From Lachnospiraceae bacterium (GTDB lineage: Bacteria > Bacillota > Clostridia > Lachnospirales > Lachnospiraceae): 64,000 nucleotides of DNA. Position numbers and translations under genes: made by a program. Below, piece after piece: positions 18,485-64,000 of this stretch (positions are counted from its first letter, which is position 1; each line of letters begins with the position of its first letter). The stretch lies in the NCBI GenBank assembly GCA_017624495.1, contig JAGAMY010000020.1, positions 26,699-90,698 of the forward strand, read 5' to 3'. The notes beneath the pieces are model-generated. The model saw nothing but the letters and a program-made list of their open reading frames with translations, had not been told where the DNA came from and made no database searches.

Positions 18485-19950
18485 TTACTTAATGTTTTCA
18501 ATAGCTTTTTCTACAACTTTTACATTTTTTTCACCGAAAATATTCGTCAAATTGTTCAGCAGGCTATTGTCTATATGCACATTACGGCTTGCAGGAAGTC
18601 GTTTCAGGGCTTTTTCTGTCGAAATATAGATAATTACCGCATCGTTTCCGTCAGAATCCACAATGGTCTGATATAATCTTTGTTCATTTTGCTCATACTC
18701 TGCTTTCGTAGCAAACTGAATCCATAATTCACGCCTTGCCGCATCAAAGGGATAGACCTTTTCACAGATAACTTTTCCGTTTTTTTCCTCCTCCACATTG
18801 GCTCTGCCACGAATAAAGACCTTTGCATCCTCCTGCATTAAGGACTGGTTTTTCTCGTAATCCCTTGGAAAAACCACAACTTCCACTGTTCCAAGCAGGT
18901 CTTCAATGGTTAAAAATGCCATGACTTTATTGGTTTTTGTATATTTTATGGTCTTTTCCGTAATCATACCACCAACCATTACCGCTGTACCGTCTTTAAT
19001 TTTAGCTTCTCCAATTTCCTCGTCTAAAAGGAAATCTGCGGTTGTGGCAGAGATATTTTTGCGCCAGCGTTCTTCGTACTCTTCTAACGGATGACCACTG
19101 ACATAAATACCCAATACTTCTTTTTCAAAACCAAGCATGGTTTCTTTGTCGTATTCACCCACATCCGGCATGGTGATTTCGTATTCTTTCTTTTGTTCTT
19201 CTGATAGTGTATCCATCTCAAACAGGCTCATCTGTCCATCCGGTACATTTTTTTTGTCTTGGTGAATACTGTCTAATATGGAAGCATAGACCATCATTTT
19301 CTGCTTTCTCGTACCCTCAAGTCCATCCATTGCTCCTGCTTTTATGAAGTTTTCCACCGCACGTTTATTGACTTCTCCACCACTCATGCGGGTAAGAAAA
19401 TCCTTTAAGGATGTAAATTTTCCTGCTTTTTTACGCTCATTTAAAATAGCTTCGATTACCGGTCTTCCCACACTTCGGATTGCGGATAAACCATAACGTA
19501 TCTGTTTACCGGATACAGAAAATCCACTTTCTCCTTCATTAATATCCGGTGGCAATATTGCAATTCCCATACGTCTGCAGGTCAAAATATACTCGGAAAC
19601 TTTTGAAGTATTATCCTGCACAGAGGTCATTAGTGCTGCCATATATTCTACCGGATAGTAGTATTTTAAATAGGCTGTCTGGTAGGATACCACTGCGTAA
19701 GCTGCCGCATGAGATTTATTAAACGCATACTTTGCAAAGTCAATCATTTCATCATAAATCTTGTTGGCAACCTTTTCATCAATACCATTTGCCACACAGC
19801 CGGGAACATTTTCTTCCGGCTTGCCATAGACGAAGTTTCTCCGCTCCTCTTCCATAACGGACTGCTTTTTCTTAGACATGGCACGACGTACCAAATCGCT
19901 TCGTCCCCAGGTATAACCGGCTAAGTCCCTTACAATCTGCATAACCTGTT
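18485..19950 (-). CDS. dnaE: DNA polymerase III alpha subunit DnaE, exon 2 (C-terminal part)
   Basis: This exon begins at 19950 with AACAGGTTATG, directly after the intron. When joined to exon 1 it restores CAG GAA CAG GTT ATG (Q-E-Q-V-M), giving the conserved VYQEQVMQIV segment. The joined coding sequence is 3480 nt (1159 residues), a normal DnaE length. Exon 2 carries the rest of the fingers (YTWGRSDLVRRAMSKKK), the helix-hairpin-helix region (YGLSAIRSVGRPVIEAI), and the OB-fold domain (VMVGGMITEKTIKYTKTNKVMAFLTIEDLLGTVEVVVF region). Translation from the internal Met at 19942 as a separate protein is possible in principle, but no ribosome site is evident. It ends 69 nt before pfkA. Confidence 0.93.
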
Positions 19951-20034
19951 ATAGTGATAGGTAACCCTTTGATATTATCTCTAGGTTTTCCCCCACTCCA
20001 CACCGTGCATGCTAGTTTCCTAGCACACGGCGTT
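19951..20034 (-). ncRNA. Group II intron domains V and VI
   Basis: On the minus strand domain V reads CGCCGTGTGCTAG, loop GAAA, CTAGCATGCACGGTG (20032-20001), with the usual two-base bulge and GNRA loop. The catalytic triad position is CGC, pairing with GUG on the other strand, in place of the more common AGC. Domain VI follows and ends GGGTTACCTATCACTAT at 19951. The A in CCTATCACTAT, 8 nt from the end, is the likely branch nucleotide. Confidence 0.85.
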
Positions 20035-20127
20035 CCATCGTCATAACTTTTATTCATTCTAATCAAACAACCTAAATTTAATAAGTAACTACTTTAATAT
20101 TTCTTCCATGACTTATTGGCTATATTA

Positions 20128-20430
20128 TTAATTATTATATCTAAGCCCAGCATACATTAACATTATAAGTCCAATTATAAAACCTATTATAAAAGCAACA
20201 AAACTCCATTCGGAATTTGTAATACCTATGATTATACTCGTAATTAAAAGACCTGCACCAATTATGGTAACGCCTATTCCTGATATAATACAGAATGCTT
20301 TTTTATTTTCATTGGTTACTTTATCATAATGATAACTATGCAATAATGATATTTTTTCTTTTTTCCATATAAGATAACCAAAAACAATGAAAGTAAATCC
20401 TATTAGTCCTATAATAATCTCACCAATCAT
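20128..20430 (-). CDS. Small membrane protein, DUF3784-like, carried inside the group II intron
   Basis: 100 residues with a very good ribosome site (GGGAGGTGAG 3 nt before ATG). It has three hydrophobic segments: IIIGLIGFTFIVFGYLIW, IISGIGVTIIGAGLLITSII and FVAFIIGFIIGLIMLMYAGL. The HSYHYDKVTNENKKAFC stretch between the first two is like that of DUF3784 membrane proteins of Firmicutes. It lies 83 nt after the maturase stop and about 95 nt before domain V, so it is inside intron domain IV. It is not part of any known intron machinery and looks like cargo. Function unknown. Confidence 0.75.
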   Translation of the reverse strand: MIGEIIIGLIGFTFIVFGYLIWKKEKISLLHSYHYDKVTNENKKAFCIISGIGVTIIGAGLLITSIIIGITNSEWSFVAFIIGFIIGLIMLMYAGLRYNN

Positions 20431-20513
20431 AATCTCACCTCCCTATATATTTTAATTATATAAAATAATTTTGTAATTTCAAATAAGGAGCGTTTAAATT
20501 ACTTATTCAAGGT

Positions 20514-22460
20514 TTATTCATATTTATAACTAAGCTTAAGGCTCTTTCTTTCCTTAACAATAATGGGTAATTCCAATAATTGTCTTAGTCTATTTACCTT
20601 TCTTAATTCGGTTGATTTAATGTTTAGCAAATTGATATAATATTCAATCGTCTCAAGTTTGTTTGCATGTAGTAGTTTGTGAACATCTTTATCAACAAGT
20701 ACAAGATTTGAGTACTCATCAGTACCTCCTCTATGTTTCGCTTTCTTGTGGTGACAATGAATATCATCAACACTCAAAAACTCCTTGTTTGTAACATAAC
20801 ATTTGCCCCATTGAGCACTATATAAAGAAATTCTATTGTCATAATACTCAATGCTACTACTACCTATCTTTTGGTTCATTAGTTGATACATCATAGTACA
20901 ATTTATACCTAGCTTGTCGTGTATAATTGCACGACCTTCTTTGGTATAAGGACATATCCTTTGATTAAAAGCAATTGGATTTTTGAATTGCACATAATAG
21001 ATTGGATAAATAGGTTCTCTCGTCCCTTTGATATATCGCAAGGATTTTGATTTACCATATCTTTTCTTCTCTATGTCTGTTAAAGGTCGTCCTTGTTTAA
21101 CAAGTCGATTCCCTCTTTGTGTATTCAAACGATTATACATAATCCTATGATTTCGATTTTGAATTCTACTCAAATCGCTTGCAACATTCGTTGCTATACG
21201 ATAATAGTTTTGAATTCCTAATACCATTGAATTATATACAACTACTTCCTTAGCTTCTTTGTCAGAACCTTGATAACTACAAAACTTTTTAACTTGATTT
21301 GCTAACTTTTCACCCTTATCTTTAAGGGCTTTTTGACTTATGTGTGAATCTACAACATATTTTGAGTTTTTCTTCTTACGATGAACCTTAATACTAAAAC
21401 CAAGAAATTCCATACTCTTTTTACGAGTATTTACTATTCGAGTTTTCTCTTGTGAAATATCTAACTTCAATCTTTCTTTTAACCATTTTTCAATAGCTAT
21501 TTTTGATTTCAAAGCATCTTGCTCATTCTTACAAAAAATTCGAAAGTCGTCAGCATATCTCACAATCCATAACTCTTTTAGATTGGTACTTTCTCTTATT
21601 GCTCTATAACCATGTCCCCTATCGACCGTACCATTCTTTTGTGGTCTTTGACTATAATTGTCAGTCACTTTACTATATTGAAATTGACTTTCAACCCAAT
21701 GGTCTAGTTCGTTAAGAACTATATTGGCTAATAGTGGAGATAAAATCCCTCCTTGTGGAGTTCCTTTACTTGGCTTTATCAAAGTCCCATCGGGCATTTT
21801 GATAGGAGCTTTTAGTATTTGTCGAATTACATATATCAACTCTTTATCACGAATTCCTAATGCCCATATTTGTTTAATGAGCTTGCTATGGTCTACATTA
21901 TCAAAGAAACCTTTTATATCAAATTCAATTACATAATGCAAATTTGACATTTGTAACATTCGATAGGTTCTTGATATTGCATGCTCGACCGAGCGATTAG
22001 GTCTAAAACCAAAACTATTATTAGAAAATTTTGCTTCACATATAGGTTCCATTACTTGCTCAATGCATTGTTGGATTAACCTATCCCATATACATGGAAT
22101 TCCAAGTGGCCTTGTTGTTCCATTGGGTTTTGGAATTTCTTTTCTTCTAACGGGTTTTGGTCTATATCCATGTTTACTTCCTCGAACTATATATCTTACC
22201 ATCTCAACAACCTCATTTGGTTGCATTTTTGCTATATCTTTAATATTTCTATTATCAGTACCAGGAGTAATACTACCTCCATTGGTCTTGATGTTTCGAT
22301 AAGCAAGTAAGATATTGTTCTCACTTAGGATAATATCCATTAGTTTTGGAAATTCGGAGTTCTCTTTGCTTTTCTTATAAAGTTCATCATAGACATCTTG
22401 CATGTCATAGTATTCATTGTGTCTCAAACTATCAATACAATGTCTCGTATCTTTAGGCAT
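20514..22460 (-). CDS. ltrA: Group II intron-encoded reverse transcriptase/maturase with HNH endonuclease
   Basis: 648 residues and apparently intact. The reverse transcriptase core shows PNGTTRPLGIP, DIKGFFDNVDH, GTPQGGILSPLLANI and the catalytic box RYADDFRIF. A maturase X domain follows. The C-terminal endonuclease shows DIHCHHKKAKHRGG, YSNLVLVDKDVHKLLH, an HNH signature. Such proteins help splicing of their host intron and drive retrohoming into intronless alleles. The start at 22460 has GGAAGTGA upstream, partly buried in a hairpin. The intact active sites suggest the element is still mobile and that maturase supply is linked to dnaE expression. ltrA is used in the generic sense; the intron class is not assigned. 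Confidence 0.95.
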   Translation of the reverse strand: MPKDTRHCIDSLRHNEYYDMQDVYDELYKKSKENSEFPKLMDIILSENNILLAYRNIKTNGGSITPGTDNRNIKDIAKMQPNEVVEMVRYIVRGSKHGYRPKPVRRKEIPKPNGTTRPLGIPCIWDRLIQQCIEQVMEPICEAKFSNNSFGFRPNRSVEHAISRTYRMLQMSNLHYVIEFDIKGFFDNVDHSKLIKQIWALGIRDKELIYVIRQILKAPIKMPDGTLIKPSKGTPQGGILSPLLANIVLNELDHWVESQFQYSKVTDNYSQRPQKNGTVDRGHGYRAIRESTNLKELWIVRYADDFRIFCKNEQDALKSKIAIEKWLKERLKLDISQEKTRIVNTRKKSMEFLGFSIKVHRKKKNSKYVVDSHISQKALKDKGEKLANQVKKFCSYQGSDKEAKEVVVYNSMVLGIQNYYRIATNVASDLSRIQNRNHRIMYNRLNTQRGNRLVKQGRPLTDIEKKRYGKSKSLRYIKGTREPIYPIYYVQFKNPIAFNQRICPYTKEGRAIIHDKLGINCTMMYQLMNQKIGSSSIEYYDNRISLYSAQWGKCYVTNKEFLSVDDIHCHHKKAKHRGGTDEYSNLVLVDKDVHKLLHANKLETIEYYINLLNIKSTELRKVNRLRQLLELPIIVKERKSLKLSYKYE

Positions 22461-22462
22461 AG

Positions 22463-22492
22463 GGCTCTCACTTCCTTTCTTGAAAGTGAGCC
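22463..22492 (-). promoter_or_regulatory. Domain IVa-like hairpin covering the maturase ribosome site
   Basis: On the minus strand GGCTCACTT pairs with AAGTGAGAGCC (two extra bases in the second arm) just before the maturase ATG. The ribosome site GGAAG sits in the loop side and 3' arm. In the Ll.LtrB intron a comparable DIVa stem binds LtrA and represses its translation. The same role here is inferred. Confidence 0.5.
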
Positions 22493-22494
22493 TT

Positions 22495-23289
22495 TTTAGT
22501 CATACACGAAATCCCTATTGTGTTTGAATGAATGAATTTTTAATTTAGTTCTTAATAAAAGTTATAACGACTTGTGCCCATTCCTCCATCTTCATTACAA
22601 AGACTTCATAGGTTCGAACACTACTTTTCAGCATTGATTCGATTGCTTATTGTTCTTCGACAATCTATATTTTCAAATACTACTAGGAATATTCAAAAAT
22701 ACTCAATACATTTCCTCGTTCCAATAATTTCTACCTTTACATATACCCTTAGGTGCTCAATATAGGCCTGTTAGCTTGGATGTGCCTTTAACACAACAAG
22801 GTCTTTCATAACCAAGATTTTTACTCAACCTCACTAACACTATGTTGAAATAGCCCCTTATGTTTCCATAAGGTCGTATATAGACCCTTTAATTTCTCGA
22901 GTTCGTCAGTCGTTTTGACATACTCACCATAGGTATTTTATAGGCTTCCGACATATCACAAATCATATCTTTTACTTTAATCTTTCTTGGCGGGCGAGCT
23001 CTAGCTACTTTTGAACCAACCATACTCAATTATTTCATTAACTTAGACTTGCTTCTGCCGACTTTACCGAGCTTCATACAAAGTTCGTTTCCAAACAATG
23101 CATGTCGGAGTCTCAAAGAGTAAGTTTCAAAGCGTTACCTTATCATTCCTTACTTCGAAATTATTAGTTCTCCATCATTTGTTTTCGACATTCCAAATTG
23201 AATCCCTTTTTACTTGAACCAATATATAAGAATATCTATTCAAATAATGTGCTTCGCCTTTGTTTATTTAAGCGAAGAACGAGTCGCAC
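22495..23289 (-). ncRNA. 5' ribozyme portion of the group II intron (domains I-III)
   Basis: About 795 nt between the 5' splice site and the domain IV ORF. No gene is supported here. The length is on the long side for domains I-III. Apart from the GTGCGACTCG start I could not assign individual helices or exon-binding sites by eye. Confidence 0.7.
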
Positions 23290-25303
23290 CCTGATAGACA
23301 ATGCAGCCATAGGTAGGAGCTAAAATCGGCTCTAACTGCGGACAGTCATAGGCAATGGGACCTTCGCTGTTTTTTCCCCGGATATATGCCGGAATAAAGT
23401 CCATAGGACCCGGTCGGTACAGGGAAATTCCCGCAATGACATCTTCTAAATTCTGCGGTTTTAACTCCTTCATAAAGTTCTTCATTCCGGCACTTTCTAA
23501 CTGGAATACCCCTTCCGTTTTTCCTGTTCCTAAGGATTCTAAAACAGCTTTATCATCGAAATCGATATGGTCGATATCAATATTTATTCCATGACCTTTT
23601 TTCACCATTTTTACCGCATTTTGAATCACGGTTAAGGTTCTAAGACCTAAAAAGTCCATTTTCAAAAGCCCCAACTCTTCGATGGTCGTCATGGTAAACT
23701 GGGTGGTAATCATGCCGTCTGAACCTCTCGATAACGGTACATATTCATCCATTGGTTTCTGTGAAATCACCACGCCTGCCGCATGCATGGAGGTATGTCT
23801 GGGCAGTCCTTCTAAACGTTTAGACATATCAATTAAACGCTTAATACTCTCATCACTTTCATACATGGAACGAAGTTCTGGATTTATTTTTAGGGCTTTA
23901 TCAATGGTAATTCCCAGTTCATTTGGTATATTTTTGGCTATTGTATCCACAAAAGCATAGGGCAAATCCATCACACGACCAACGTCACGAATAACTCCCC
24001 TTGCCGCTAAAGTACCAAAGGTAACAATCTGTGTTACACAGTCTTTACCATATTTCTCGATAACATAATCAATTACTTCCTGCCGTCTTTCAAAGCAAAA
24101 ATCCACGTCAATATCGGGCATGGATATTCGCTCCGGATTTAAAAATCGTTCAAAAATCAGACTGTATTTTATCGGGTCAATATTGGTAATTCCTGTGGTA
24201 TAAGATACTAAACTTCCTGCTGCACTTCCTCGTCCGGGACCTACGATAATCCCATTTTCCCTTGCATAACGGATATAATCCCAAACAATTAGAAAATACT
24301 CCACATATCCCATGTCTTTAATAACATTTAATTCGTATTCTAATCTTGGTTTTAATTCCTCTGCATTATCAGGATAGCGTTCTTCTAAGCCATCGTAGCA
24401 GAGTTTTTCTAAATATTCATAGGTGGTATATCCATCCGGTACTGGGAAATTTGGCAGTTTTGTATTTCCAAATTCGATTTCCACATGACAGCGGTCTGCA
24501 ATTTTCTGTGTGTTTTCCACCGCCTCAATGGCATAAGGAAATAGGCGTTTCATTTCCTCTTCTGACTTGACATAATATTGTCCGCCTTCATAACGCATGC
24601 GGTTTTCATCGCTTAATTTTTTACCTGTCTGTAAACACAACAGTATATCATGAGGCTCTGCATCGGCTTCATAGGTGTAATGTACGTCATTGGTAGCAAC
24701 CAGTGCAATGCCTGTATCCTTTGACAAACGTAAAAGCTGCTGATTAACCGTCTGCTGCTCTGGAATCCCATGGTCCTGCAACTCTAAGTAAAAATTATCC
24801 TTTCCAAAGCAGTTCTGATATTTTAATGCTGTTTCTTTTGCTTCTTCATAAAAACCACGCACTAAATAACGCTGTACCTCTCCGGCAAGACAGGCACTTA
24901 AGGCAATAATCCCTTCATGATAAGTTTCTAAAACTTCCATGTCTACCCTTGGCTTGTAATAGTAACCATCCACAAATCCTTTAGATACAATTTTTACCAG
25001 ATTACTGTATCCGGTGTTGTTTTCCGCTAATAAAACCAAATGGTAATAGCGGTCTTCGCCGTGGGTGTTTTCTCTGTCAAAACGGGAATTGGGGGCAACG
25101 TATACTTCACAGCCTAGTACGGGGTTGATTCCGGCAGCCGTGGCAGCTTTGTAGAAGTCAATGACACCGTACATGACACCGTGGTCGGTAATAGCTGCGG
25201 CGGTCATGCCAAGTTCTTTGACCCTTGCAACGTATTCTTTTATTTTGTTCGAGCCGTCAAGAAGACTGTACTCGGTATGCACGTGTAAGTGTGTAAATGA
25301 CAT
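23290..25303 (-). CDS. dnaE: DNA polymerase III alpha subunit DnaE, exon 1 (N-terminal part)
   Basis: Exon 1 encodes 671 residues plus the first base of a Glu codon. The PHP domain opens with FTHLHVHTEYSLLDG. The polymerase region has GPGRGSAAGS, the catalytic PDIDVDF near residue 396 and the third catalytic Asp in KMDFLGLRTL near 549. So all three active-site aspartates are in exon 1, and the break falls later in the fingers. Without splicing the frame reads eight intron-encoded residues after VYQ and a following Lys then stops, giving a truncated polymerase. GGAG lies upstream of the ATG at 25303. A possible -10 (TATACT) lies about 45 nt upstream. The gene begins beside the compound palindromic repeat. 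Confidence 0.94.
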
Positions 25304-25479
25304 ATTTTTAACTCCATTTCTGTTAATGGTTTTAGTATAACTTATGAGAGGGTGGGAAGTCTATAAGAAATAAATTACGTTTTGACGATGCAGTTTATCC
25401 CGAAATGCCGGAGTGAAACGAACGGCAGACGAACACTGTGTGGCTAAGTTTCCGTCCAGTATAAAAGGTATTGGAATTT

Positions 25480-25531
25480 GGTAAAAAGAGCCGGGGACTG
25501 TGCAACGGCAGAGTGTCCGGCTCTTTTTACC
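25480..25531. terminator. 15-bp perfect stem-loop inside the compound repeat
   Basis: GGTAAAAAGAGCCGG (25480-25494) pairs perfectly with CCGGCTCTTTTTACC (25517-25531) across 22 nt. The T5/A5 tracts are within the stem on both strands, so it could end transcripts from either side. It lies upstream of dnaE. Confidence 0.5.
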
Positions 25532-25575
25532 AGATTTACATTTTGTAACCGGACTGGGATATTGGCTATGGTACG

Positions 25576-25718
25576 TCTGCCTGGGTTACGAAAGGATTTA
25601 GGGATAATCTACATCGAAACCTCCACAGGTAGATGACGCCAGAACACTTACGGCTACATCTCTACTCTATGGAGATTTTGATGCATATTATCCCAGAATT
25701 CCTCGTAACCCAGGCAGA
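25576..25718. repeat. Middle palindromic module of copy 1
   Basis: TCTGCCTGGGTTACGA (25576-25591) has its exact reverse complement at 25703-25718. Between them a further pairing is possible: GGATAATCTACATCGAAACC on one side with a near complement containing ATTTTGATGCATATTATCC on the other. The outer ends also share CCGGACTGG/CCAGTCCGG. Confidence 0.7.
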
Positions 25719-25839
25719 CACGTCCTACGCTCTCCAGTCCGGTATCACAGCGTAAATCAGTAAAGCAGGCAGGGGGAGTAGCTCTGTGGAATTGGTAGTG
25801 AAAAGTAGTGTTTCTTACATTTTCTAAACGAATAGTTAT

Positions 25840-25913
25840 GCGCAAACATGGACGTTTGCGCAAGAATCCGCCACGGCATGGACGCCGTGTCGGATTCGGT
25901 AACGAACGTTGCC
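25840..25913. repeat. Core triple-hairpin of the compound repeat
   Basis: Three adjacent hairpins: GCGCAAAC/GTTTGCGC with loop ATGGAC (25840-25861); GAATCCGxCACGGC/GCCGTGxCGGATTC with the same loop ATGGAC (25864-25897); and GGTAAC/GTTGCC with loop GAAC (25898-25913). The same three occur at 63866-63939 in the other orientation, with paired base changes. Confidence 0.85.
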
Positions 25914-26096
25914 ACTATATAAATGAAAATGTATAGAAACCCTCTTTTCACGGACTTCCACAGAACTGCTCCCCCTGCCTGTTTTACTGACTTCATACAC
26001 TATGAATACCGGACGGAAACCTATCCACACAATGCACGTCTGCCGGAAGCTTCGCACCGACATTCCGGGATAAACATGCATCGCTAAACCGTAACT

Positions 26097-49327: not shown

Positions 49328-49603
49328 GGGTAGATTCCTTTCTTTGGGCGATACTATTACTTTTCCGCCGGTTTCTGCGAAACTGGGCGGGTAGGCTCGT
49401 TTCTGCGAAACATCGCCTATGCTTTTTTTGGTGGTGTATGGCGGACGTGAAAACCGGCTGCTCCGCTTCTTCGAAGCTCCCGCATCCGCAGTATTCACAA
49501 CTTCGGGCTATTGCCCTGCGTTGTTCATACTGTACATTCGCTAAATAGAGGAAGCCGCTAATGCAAGCATTTGCGGCTTTCTCTATTTTTCTCATTGTTT
49601 TCA
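49328..49603. repeat. Highly structured pflB-pflA spacer
   Basis: No gene is supported here. Inverted repeats cover most of it. AAATAGAG...CTCTATTT with inner GCCGC/GCGGC forms a 16-bp stem (49543-49588). A hairpin near 49480-49535 pairs CAGTAT..CACAAC with GTTGT..ATACTG around GGGC/GCCC. Two identical GTTTCTGCGAAAC hairpins (49371-49383 and 49399-49411) are enclosed by GGCGAT (49347-49352) and ATCGCC (49412-49417). A minus-strand T-run is absent after the first stem, so pflA may be reached by read-through. Confidence 0.65.
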
Positions 49604-51905: not shown

Positions 51906-52154
51906 GAGCACAACGTGTACCAAAAAACATACAAGAAAAAATTTCTCAACAAGCCATTTTTACCCACTTTAACGCGGTAATGCTGTACGTTTTTTCCGTA
52001 AAAAACAAGAAATCCGACACGTCTGGACTCTTCGCCCAGACGGTCGGCATTTTAAACGTTATACTTCACGTGGTATACTCCACTTTTCCGTCAGTCATAT
52101 AACTATTGTCATTTAAACATGATTTTTTAGAAAAGTCAAGCCAAAAACCTATGA
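51906..52154. other. Intergenic stretch between pflB promoter and GH59-like gene
   Basis: Together with the pflB promoter and operator this makes a gene-free gap of 322 nt. Apart from the terminator hairpin at 52014-52047 I see only AT-rich sequence with no conserved element. Confidence 0.5.
52014..52047 (-). terminator. Terminator downstream of the GH59-like gene
   Basis: CCGAC and CGTCTGG (52014-52026, one bulge) pair with CCAGACG and GTCGG (52036-52047). On the minus strand the stem is followed by ATTTCTTGTTTTTT. It lies about 110 nt beyond the stop codon. Confidence 0.6.
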
Positions 52155-62614: not shown

Positions 62615-63685
62615 GTGATTATAGAATCCGGCAATGTAGCCATGACATCACGCAGGAGTTATGACCGCACGGTTACAGCCACTTCGTCCCTCTCCCTTTG
62701 GGGCAGTGGTTTTAGTCAGGACAACGTTACGCAGGTGACAAGTCAGTATCATGAAGAATCCGGCACGGATAATGAAAGTTCATCCACCGAAACAAGTTCC
62801 TCAGAAGACATTTTTCAAGAATTTATGCAGGCACAGAGCATCAGTTCTCCGGTAACAATGAGTAAAACGGCTAGCGATTTAGATACCATACGCCAGCAGT
62901 CTATCACTTATCTGCTAAGACTGCTGTTTGGAAAAGAGACAGCTTCACCCTTAGACCGTCTGCGTGAACAGATAAATTCCCTGCGCAAAAGCAACCATAC
63001 TACCCCCATCGTTACCGGTGGCAATTATACAGAATCAACTTATTTTTCAGAAAAGGAAAGCACTTCTTTTTCTACTACAGGCACGGTAAAAACTGCTGAT
63101 GGCAGAGAATTTTCCTTTAACCTTTCGCTCACCATGAGCCGTTCTTTTACAGAAACCTATGCCAAAAGCATAAGCTTTGGCGAACAGCCGCAGGTCTGTG
63201 ACCCTTTAGTTATTAATGTAAGTGCAAATACTGCTTCTGTATCTGATCAAAAATTCTTCTTTGATTTGGATGCGGACGGTTCTGTGGATAAAATCTCTAA
63301 ACTTTCCGCAGGCAGTGGATTTCTAGCCTTAGATAAAAATAATGATGGCATGATTAATAACGGCACGGAGCTGTTTGGTACACAAAGTGGTGATGGTTTT
63401 GTAGAGCTTGCTGCTTATGATGAGGATAACAATGGCTGGATTGACGAGGCAGATGCGATTTTTGACAGGCTTCGTATCTGGACGAAAGATGCCAACGGAA
63501 ATGATGTGCTTTGCGCCCTTGGAAAAGCTGGCGTTGGTGCAATTTATTTAGGACATCAGGATACGGAATTTTCGTTAAATTCGGCAAAAGATAATTCTGC
63601 CAATGCGCTGATTCGTAAGACGGGTATTTTTCTTTACGAAAATGGTGGTTGCGGAACGATACAGCATCTGGATATGGTGGTGTAA
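62615..63685 (+). CDS. Protein with C-terminal EF-hand/hemolysin-type Asp repeats
   Basis: 356 residues, starting at GTG (62615) because AAGGAGGAGTAAAAC lies directly before it; no better ATG is nearby. The first 200 residues are Ser/Thr-rich with no recognised motif. The last 150 resemble the C-terminal block of RTX and large adhesin proteins: FDLDADGSVDKI, LDKNNDGMINNGTELFG, and YDEDNNGWIDEADAIFDRLRIW. These supply several Dx(D/N)x(D/N)G calcium-binding loops. No signal peptide is visible. The stop codon is followed within 5 nt by the second copy of the compound palindromic repeat. Confidence 0.75.
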   Translation: MIIESGNVAMTSRRSYDRTVTATSSLSLWGSGFSQDNVTQVTSQYHEESGTDNESSSTETSSSEDIFQEFMQAQSISSPVTMSKTASDLDTIRQQSITYLLRLLFGKETASPLDRLREQINSLRKSNHTTPIVTGGNYTESTYFSEKESTSFSTTGTVKTADGREFSFNLSLTMSRSFTETYAKSISFGEQPQVCDPLVINVSANTASVSDQKFFFDLDADGSVDKISKLSAGSGFLALDKNNDGMINNGTELFGTQSGDGFVELAAYDEDNNGWIDEADAIFDRLRIWTKDANGNDVLCALGKAGVGAIYLGHQDTEFSLNSAKDNSANALIRKTGIFLYENGGCGTIQHLDMVV

Positions 63686-63689
63686 ATTC

Positions 63690-64000
63690 CGGTTTGGCGA
63701 TGTCGTTTATCCCGGAATGCCGAGCGAAGCATCCGGCAGACGTACACTGTGTGGCTAAGTTTCCGTCCGGTATTCATAGTGTATGAAGTCAGTAAAACAG
63801 ACGCAGGGGGTAGTTTGGTGGAAGTCCGTGAAAAGAGGGTTTCTATACATTTTCAATTAGATAGCGGTAACGTCCGTTACCGAATCTGACACGGCGTCCA
63901 TGCCGTGGCAGATTCTTGCGCAAACGTCCATGTTTGCGCATAACTAGGTCACTTAGAAAATGTAAGAAACACTACTTTTTACTACCAATTCCACCAAACT
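63690..64000. repeat. Compound palindromic repeat, copy 2 (cut by window end)
   Basis: The sequence after the stop codon at 63685 matches the right half of the repeat at 25380-26095 in reverse complement. Shared landmarks are TTTATCCCGGAATG, GGCAGACGT, TGTGTGG, TTTCCGTCCGGTATTCATAG, AGTCAGTAAAACAG and the three core hairpins at 63866-63881, 63882-63915 and 63918-63939. It continues past the window. No gene is present in these 315 nt. Confidence 0.9.

What the first reader, a model, noticed from the sequence alone, without database searches (positions are those of the whole stretch)
25380..26095. A 715-bp compound palindromic repeat with nested inverted repeats at several scales
Seen: outer arms, second arms, a middle module with a 16-bp perfect inverted repeat, a 15-bp perfect stem, and a core of three hairpins, all inside one intergenic region, with a second inverted copy 38 kb away. 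No transposase gene or typical insertion-sequence ends are visible. Inference: this is an uncatalogued repeat family, possibly a structured RNA, a non-autonomous mobile element or a chromosome-organising site.
Basis: partly seen in the sequence, partly recalled or inferred. Interest (0 to 1): 0.8.

Follow-up and report, generated by a model that had tools for sequence, protein, structure and literature searches.

The report
Palindromic repeat carrying paired CsrA-type hairpins
A gut bacterium of the Roseburia group carries dozens of copies of a large folded DNA repeat, placed between genes and often right behind a stop codon; its core is a known but unexplained RNA motif that resembles docking sites for the regulator CsrA, so the repeat may be mobile DNA that also works as a scattered regulatory decoy.

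Summary
The compound palindrome is real (25374-26096) and belongs to a high-copy family: about 40 places in the window's 1.93-Mb draft genome. Its core is a catalogued RNA motif, Rfam RF01731 TwoAYGGAY, so "uncatalogued" is half right; I found no paper on the surrounding architecture, copy number or mobility. The complete form holds two cores facing outwards (26 of 27 neighbouring pairs), mostly of two different types. The window copy has lost one core and kept its stem. In the window's genome 13 of 21 intact ends sit 1-10 nt behind a stop codon. Relatives lack the element at two sites checked and show plain hairpins there. Stems are almost purely Watson-Crick; G.U pairs are rare and far less strand-biased than in SRP RNA, which points to folding as DNA, but finer alignments leave a weak sense-strand bias. 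No transposase, plasmid or phage link was found. The loops resemble the CsrA recognition hairpin, and 30 of 30 carriers that I chose encode CsrA, but the background rate was not measured. Best reading: a non-autonomous, MITE-like palindromic repeat carrying paired CsrA-type hairpins; whether it acts as a CsrA decoy is open.

The parts
25374..26096 (+). whole element, oriented by its remaining TwoAYGGAY core; both ends carry the family end (ATTACG..., GTTACGG... on the other strand)
25380..25474 (+). left outer arm (outL)
   Evidence: inverted repeat I1; module parse
25475..25536 (+). hairpin H1: in other copies (L069, L082, L058, L079, L061, L064) a minus-strand TwoAYGGAY core sits in its loop; here that core is missing
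25537..25753 (+). middle module M2 with 17-bp perfect inverted repeat; absent or shortened in some copies (L046, L068a)
25754..25993 (+). outer stem and core 1
   Evidence: inverted repeat I2, module parse
25793..25956 (+). TwoAYGGAY core, RF01731, 109.5 bits
25848..25853 (+). first AYGGAY loop (ATGGAC)
   Evidence: sequence; loop conservation
25878..25883 (+). second AYGGAY loop (ATGGAC)
   Evidence: sequence; loop conservation
25994..26096 (+). right outer arm (outR), ending 1 nt before the malic enzyme stop codon
63686..64000 (-). second copy, inverted, directly behind a stop codon (63683-63685), cut by the contig end
63823..63987 (-). TwoAYGGAY core of the second copy, 109.2 bits
26097..27323 (-). 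neighbouring malic enzyme gene; its stop codon abuts the element
23264..25303 (-). neighbouring dnaE (first part), starting beyond the left end

Best explanation
It is one copy of a high-copy, non-autonomous, MITE-like palindromic repeat of Roseburia and other Lachnospiraceae. The complete form is a pair of TwoAYGGAY hairpin modules facing outwards inside nested stems; the window copy has lost one core and kept its stem. Shown: copy number, patchy distribution, outward pairing, position between genes and often right behind stop codons, absence at two sites in relatives, stems kept almost only by Watson-Crick pairs. Inferred: it spreads through an unknown trans-acting enzyme, with a stage in which the DNA is folded and which keeps the stems paired. 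Inferred, less surely: where the AYGGAY strand is transcribed, each core offers two GGA loops to CsrA, so the scattered copies add CsrA sites to transcripts.
For: About 40 places in G000 (tally). RF01731 in 9 of 15 genomes of the genus with 1 to 50 matches each, none in 6; 45 of 299 in the family. 26 of 27 neighbouring core pairs face outwards; different types in 8 of 8 (G007), 4 of 4 typed (G000), 2 of 2 (G009), 1 of 2 (G002), 0 of 1 (G012), 0 of 1 (G005). 13 of 21 intact ends 1-10 nt behind a stop codon, background 41 of 1890. Empty sites: malic enzyme end in G004; convergent pair of G005, where the matches of G009, G002 and G013 lie 83, 132 and 141 bp apart instead of 754, 754 and 806. Stems: G.T 52, A.C 51 over 111 cores, SRP control 59 and 4; G.U sense 2.05, antisense 2.70 per core, SRP 17.0 and 6.5. 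No gene in the element.
Against: No enzyme and no target-site duplication found; solo cores are common, which a two-ended transposon does not explain. Single-type alignments show a sense-strand bias: 86 G.T to 47 A.C, columns 77 to 45, p 0.005; core 1 and M2 in G000 13:3 and 11:3; distant families 20:7, with the sense strand more stable in 19 of 19 genomes. Some sites are shared between species, so movement may be old. CsrA in 30 of 30 chosen carriers favours an RNA role at least in part.
Confidence: 0.55

Rival explanations
1. The core is primarily a CsrA-binding RNA: small RNAs or untranslated-region segments in many copies that bind and titrate CsrA, as CsrB and RsmZ do in Gammaproteobacteria. 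The RMfam authors proposed CsrA binding for TwoAYGGAY.
For: Loops C-AYGGAY-G with GGA at 95-100%, the shape of the CsrA recognition hairpin (recalled) and matched by RMfam (PMC4333381 passages). CsrA in 30 of 30 carriers chosen by me. Sense-strand G.U bias in single-type alignments and in distant families.
Against: G.U pairs much rarer and less strand-biased than in SRP RNA. Inside the genus CsrA was found in 7 of 9 carriers and 5 of 6 non-carriers. No promoter preference on the 5' side of 94 cores. Solo cores: the gene on the 5' side points at the core in 18 and away in 17 of 61 (26 unresolved), so there is no excess of sense read-through. Nested stems, outward pairs and patchy copy number need another cause.
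Confidence: 0.25
2. It is a MITE of an ordinary known transposase family (DDE type), and the hairpins are passengers.
For: Imperfect terminal inverted repeats, no gene, high copy, intergenic.
Against: No autonomous relative among frames near 97 loci (the 40 largest groups shown); no target duplication of 4 bp or more at the window copy (by eye). Families other than Y1 were not searched.
Confidence: 0.12
3. It is a chromosome-organising or replication-related site.
For: Palindromic DNA with little strand bias.
Against: Absent from 6 of 15 genomes of one genus, placement behind stop codons. Spacing along a chromosome was not tested.
Confidence: 0.04

Closest known systems
Rfam RF01731 TwoAYGGAY RNA (listed in Weinberg et al. 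2010, PMC2864571; table row seen)
   Same: The core of each copy scores 109 bits, far over the cut-off.
   Different: In print it is a candidate RNA of unknown function; here it is the core of a larger high-copy palindrome, usually in outward pairs, with little RNA-type strand bias.
CsrA-binding small RNAs (CsrB, CsrC, RsmX, RsmY, RsmZ)
   Same: GGA in hairpin loops, two per core; CsrA in the chosen carriers.
   Different: Dozens of scattered copies, no promoter signal, stems nearly without G.U.
MITE-like and palindromic intergenic repeats: Bacillus cereus bcr1-bcr3, ERIC, PU-BIME/REP, pneumococcal RUP (passages of PMC3446304 and PMC2267715; BOX recalled)
   Same: High-copy intergenic palindromes; bcr1-bcr3 are called MITE-like and often lie in untranslated regions.
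   Different: Larger, nested at several scales, built from cores with two conserved GGA loops, outward pairs; no sequence relation was tested.
REP/RAYT and IS200/IS605 elements
   Same: Hairpins with conserved loops kept as folded DNA (recalled).
   Different: Y1 transposase absent from 8 of 9 carriers in the genus.

Membership tests
Rfam RF01731 TwoAYGGAY | score over the curated cut-off of 43 bits | tested here: met
   109.5 and 109.2 bits; 34 of 35 matches in G000 over it
CsrA-binding RNA | GGA in the loop of paired hairpins | tested here: met
   conserved at 95-100% in 111 cores
CsrA-binding RNA | CsrA encoded by the carrier | tested here: inconclusive
   30 of 30 chosen carriers, 7 of 9 in the genus, not found in the 55% complete own draft; no background rate
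CsrA-binding RNA | helices with RNA-type G.U use on the sense strand | tested here: inconclusive
   balanced over all cores, weak bias within types, SRP control strong
CsrA-binding RNA | transcription and CsrA binding | not testable with these tools
   no RNA data; no promoter preference
MITE | small, no gene, terminal inverted repeats, high copy | tested here: met
   repeats imperfect (73%)
MITE | target-site duplication | tested here: inconclusive
   none of 4 bp or more at the window copy by eye; flanks of empty sites too diverged
MITE | autonomous element with the same ends | tested here: not met
   no recurring linked gene near 97 loci; partner elsewhere in the genome not searched beyond Y1
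REP/RAYT or IS200/IS605 | Y1 transposase (PF01797) in carriers | tested here: not met
   1 of 9 carriers, partial with a stop; 6 of 6 non-carriers, one below cut-off

The most novel reading that the evidence does not exclude
A transposable CsrA decoy: a mobile palindromic repeat whose conserved cargo is a pair of CsrA-binding hairpins, so that each insertion behind a stop codon adds CsrA sites and the copies together set the level of free CsrA, in Gram-positive bacteria whose CsrA circuits are said to work without antagonistic small RNAs.
Probability: 0.25. Interest if true: 0.85.

Novelty: new variant of a known kind. Interest (0 to 1): 0.6.

Why it matters
A catalogued RNA of unknown function turns out, in Roseburia and relatives, to be the core of an abundant, apparently mobile DNA palindrome. 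If the cores bind CsrA, they would be scattered CsrA antagonists in Gram-positive bacteria, where CsrA circuits are said to work without antagonistic small RNAs (PMC7196914, passage seen) and FliW is the antagonist known from Bacillus subtilis (PMC4682653, passages). If they do not, RF01731 should be re-described in this family as a mobile DNA element, and it would be a case where strong covariation does not by itself prove an RNA. The repeat also breaks assemblies: by my tally 24 of the 102 contig ends of this draft lie within 20 bp of a copy.

Tried and rejected
Linked gene: 1332 open frames of 70 aa or more from 97 loci (L046-L142) compared with each other; the 40 largest groups shown were element-derived frames or ordinary genes. 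Y1 transposase: disfavoured. Plasmid and phage records: no match to the 716 bp by distant blastn. Viral contigs: 4 pattern matches, none RF01731 at the gathering cut-off. Promoters: best promoter scores on the 5' sense side of 94 cores (9.14) equal those on the other strand and side (9.13, 9.22, 9.02) and lie a little over shuffles (8.88, p 0.005), so no preference. The window copy shows 3 promoter-like sites (1.1 expected) and no terminator-like site (0.7 expected) by the scan. Gene-end bias over all 87 elements is modest: 83 stops, 53 starts (p 0.013); 16 convergent, 32 tandem, 4 divergent, 35 unresolved.

Further strand counts: first mismatch count, both strands' folds added, gave G.T 82 to A.C 33 for G000 and 141 to 121 for the rest; per-genome mismatch measure gave G.T over A.C in 9 and the reverse in 11 of 28 labels (Lachnospiraceae), 9 and 5 of 19 (phylum), 10 and 2 of 30 (SRP). 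Rows left out: cores under about 155 nt in the alignments; groups of fewer than 3; L051 because its contig matches one of G004 exactly over 1635 bp; it was still. L062 (core lost) lies at a contig end and may be an assembly artefact.

Papers: all 10 searches used. Seven papers hold the word TwoAYGGAY, 5 listed; I read passages of three, none of them on copy number or mobility; the other two I saw only as listings. The claim that the architecture is not in print rests on these searches of an open-access library alone.

Full report
OBSERVATION. Comparing ends of other copies puts the element at 25374-26096; on the right it abuts the malic enzyme stop codon. The partner copy starts at 63686 and is cut by the contig end.

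WHAT IT IS. The core at 25793-25956 and its partner at 63823-63987 are Rfam RF01731, TwoAYGGAY. A DNA search of the window's own genome (G000, 1.93 Mb, 54.7% complete) gives 98 pieces, and RF01731 gives 35 matches, 34 over the cut-off; by my tally these are 40 places, 24 of them within 20 bp of a contig end. So the window is probably from a Roseburia-like species; this is inference.

DISTRIBUTION. RF01731 is in 9 of 15 genomes of the genus (1 to 50 matches each, none in 6), 45 of 299 genomes of the family (43 over the cut-off) and 51 of 398 of the phylum (34 over the cut-off, most of them weaker); the last two searches scored only the best candidates per genome, so their copy numbers are lower bounds. 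By plain DNA similarity only G000 and G004 of the 15 match. Dozens of copies in some species of a genus and none in others is what mobile DNA does. No match on plasmid or phage records.

ANATOMY. Other copies show the full plan: outer arm, hairpin H1 with a minus-strand core in its loop, middle module M2, plus-strand core, outer arm. The window copy has H1 without its core. L072 has lost the other core and keeps a plain hairpin there. Of the fetched loci, 27 neighbouring core pairs lie under 1 kb apart and 26 face outwards; the exception is L141. The two cores are of different types in 8 of 8 pairs of G007, 4 of 4 typed pairs of G000 (a fifth was too short to type), 2 of 2 of G009 and 1 of 2 of G002; the single pairs of G012 and G005 fell into one type in a forced two-way split; the remaining 8 pairs were not typed.

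PLACE. 13 of 21 intact outer ends in G000 lie 1-10 nt behind the stop codon of a long open frame, against 41 of 1890 background positions; one of the 21 (L068) may be a chance match of the end pattern. Over all elements the bias to gene ends is milder. Two sites are empty in relatives: behind malic enzyme in G004, whose gene is 87% identical and is followed by a plain terminator-like hairpin (the next gene differs, so this is one-sided), and between two convergent genes of G005, where the flanking matches of G009, G002 and G013 lie 83, 132 and 141 bp apart and hold a plain hairpin, by eye, in place of the element. The element seems to take the place of the terminator; this is inference. At one gene end (recG by recall) both G000 and G004 carry elements, different inside, directly behind the stop codon, so some insertions are old or sites are reused.

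DNA OR RNA. In RNA helices G.U pairs are tolerated on the sense strand while A.C, the same change seen from the other strand, is not. I predicted pairs without allowing G.U, kept those found on both strands, and counted. SRP RNA of the same family: G.T 59, A.C 4. TwoAYGGAY, 111 cores: G.T 52, A.C 51. Folding with G.U allowed: SRP 17.0 G.U per molecule against 6.5 on the antisense strand, higher in 30 of 30 genomes; Lachnospiraceae cores 2.05 against 2.70, higher in 9 and lower in 15 of 25 genomes. So the stems are kept by Watson-Crick pairing with hardly any strand preference, as expected if folded DNA is the selected or repaired form. Against a pure DNA reading: aligning one core type of one genome at a time gives 86 G.T to 47 A.C (77 to 45 columns, p 0.005; SRP 22 to 4 columns); core 1 and M2 in G000 give 13:3 and 11:3; distant families give 20:7, and there the sense strand folds better in 19 of 19 genomes. 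I read this as a mobile DNA palindrome with some constraint on the RNA strand on top. In 278 of 967 pair columns two or more Watson-Crick types occur among copies of one genome, with few intermediates. SRP is the only RNA control, and no DNA-hairpin control was run.

CSRA. Both loops read C-AYGGAY-G, with GGA at 95-100% and the first A at 99% and 88%: the shape of the CsrA recognition hairpin (recalled). The RMfam paper proposed CsrA binding for TwoAYGGAY (PMC4333381, passages). All 30 carriers that I chose (20 of 45 from genus and family, 10 of 51 from the phylum search; G561 has only a sub-cut-off match) encode CsrA; in G004 it is only a diverged form (56 bits). I gave that search carriers only and could not measure non-carriers outside the genus; inside it 7 of 9 carriers and 5 of 6 non-carriers have CsrA. 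No promoter preference precedes cores, and solo cores are not preferentially read in sense by neighbouring genes: on the 5' side 18 genes point at the core and 17 away, on the 3' side 35 and 20.

CONCLUSION. A non-autonomous, MITE-like palindromic repeat (0.55), carrying what looks like a CsrA-type double hairpin. The enzyme that moves it, a target duplication and the RNA role are open.

Noticed in passing
window 18485-25303, minus strand: dnaE is split: its first part (23264-25303) and last part (18485-19942) are separated by a group II intron (Rfam matches at 22937-23172 and 19951-20035; reverse transcriptase frame 20514-22460).
   Followed up: partly
G000:C10 (L051) and G004:C55 (L110): 100% identical over 1635 bp although the two species are otherwise about 80-87% identical at the genes compared: possible exchange of a contig between bins, or a recent transfer.
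   Followed up: no
core alignment columns 13-16, 22-25, 144-147, 153-156: Both arms of the core stem carry TTAG-(5 bp)-CTTA, which would place two conserved T.T mismatches in the folded stem; a possible protein recognition feature (pairing by eye).
   Followed up: no
G002, G004, G005, G006, G007, G011, G022, G051, G056, G074, G281: A second, diverged kind of CsrA match (53-61 bits, frames of 93-197 aa); in G004 and G007 it is the only CsrA found.
   Followed up: no
genus genomes G000-G014: Y1 transposase (PF01797) and the repeat nearly exclude each other: 6 of 6 genomes without the repeat have a match, 1 of 9 with it; probably two subclades.
   Followed up: no
window 49448-49603 and 52027-52108, minus strand: A Clostridiales-1 RNA of unknown function and a ZMP/ZTP riboswitch.
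   Followed up: no
L082 (G000) and L091 (G007): Two species with about 71% identical DNA here both carry a core pair upstream of the same gene (argC by recall): a shared old insertion or a hot spot.
   Followed up: no
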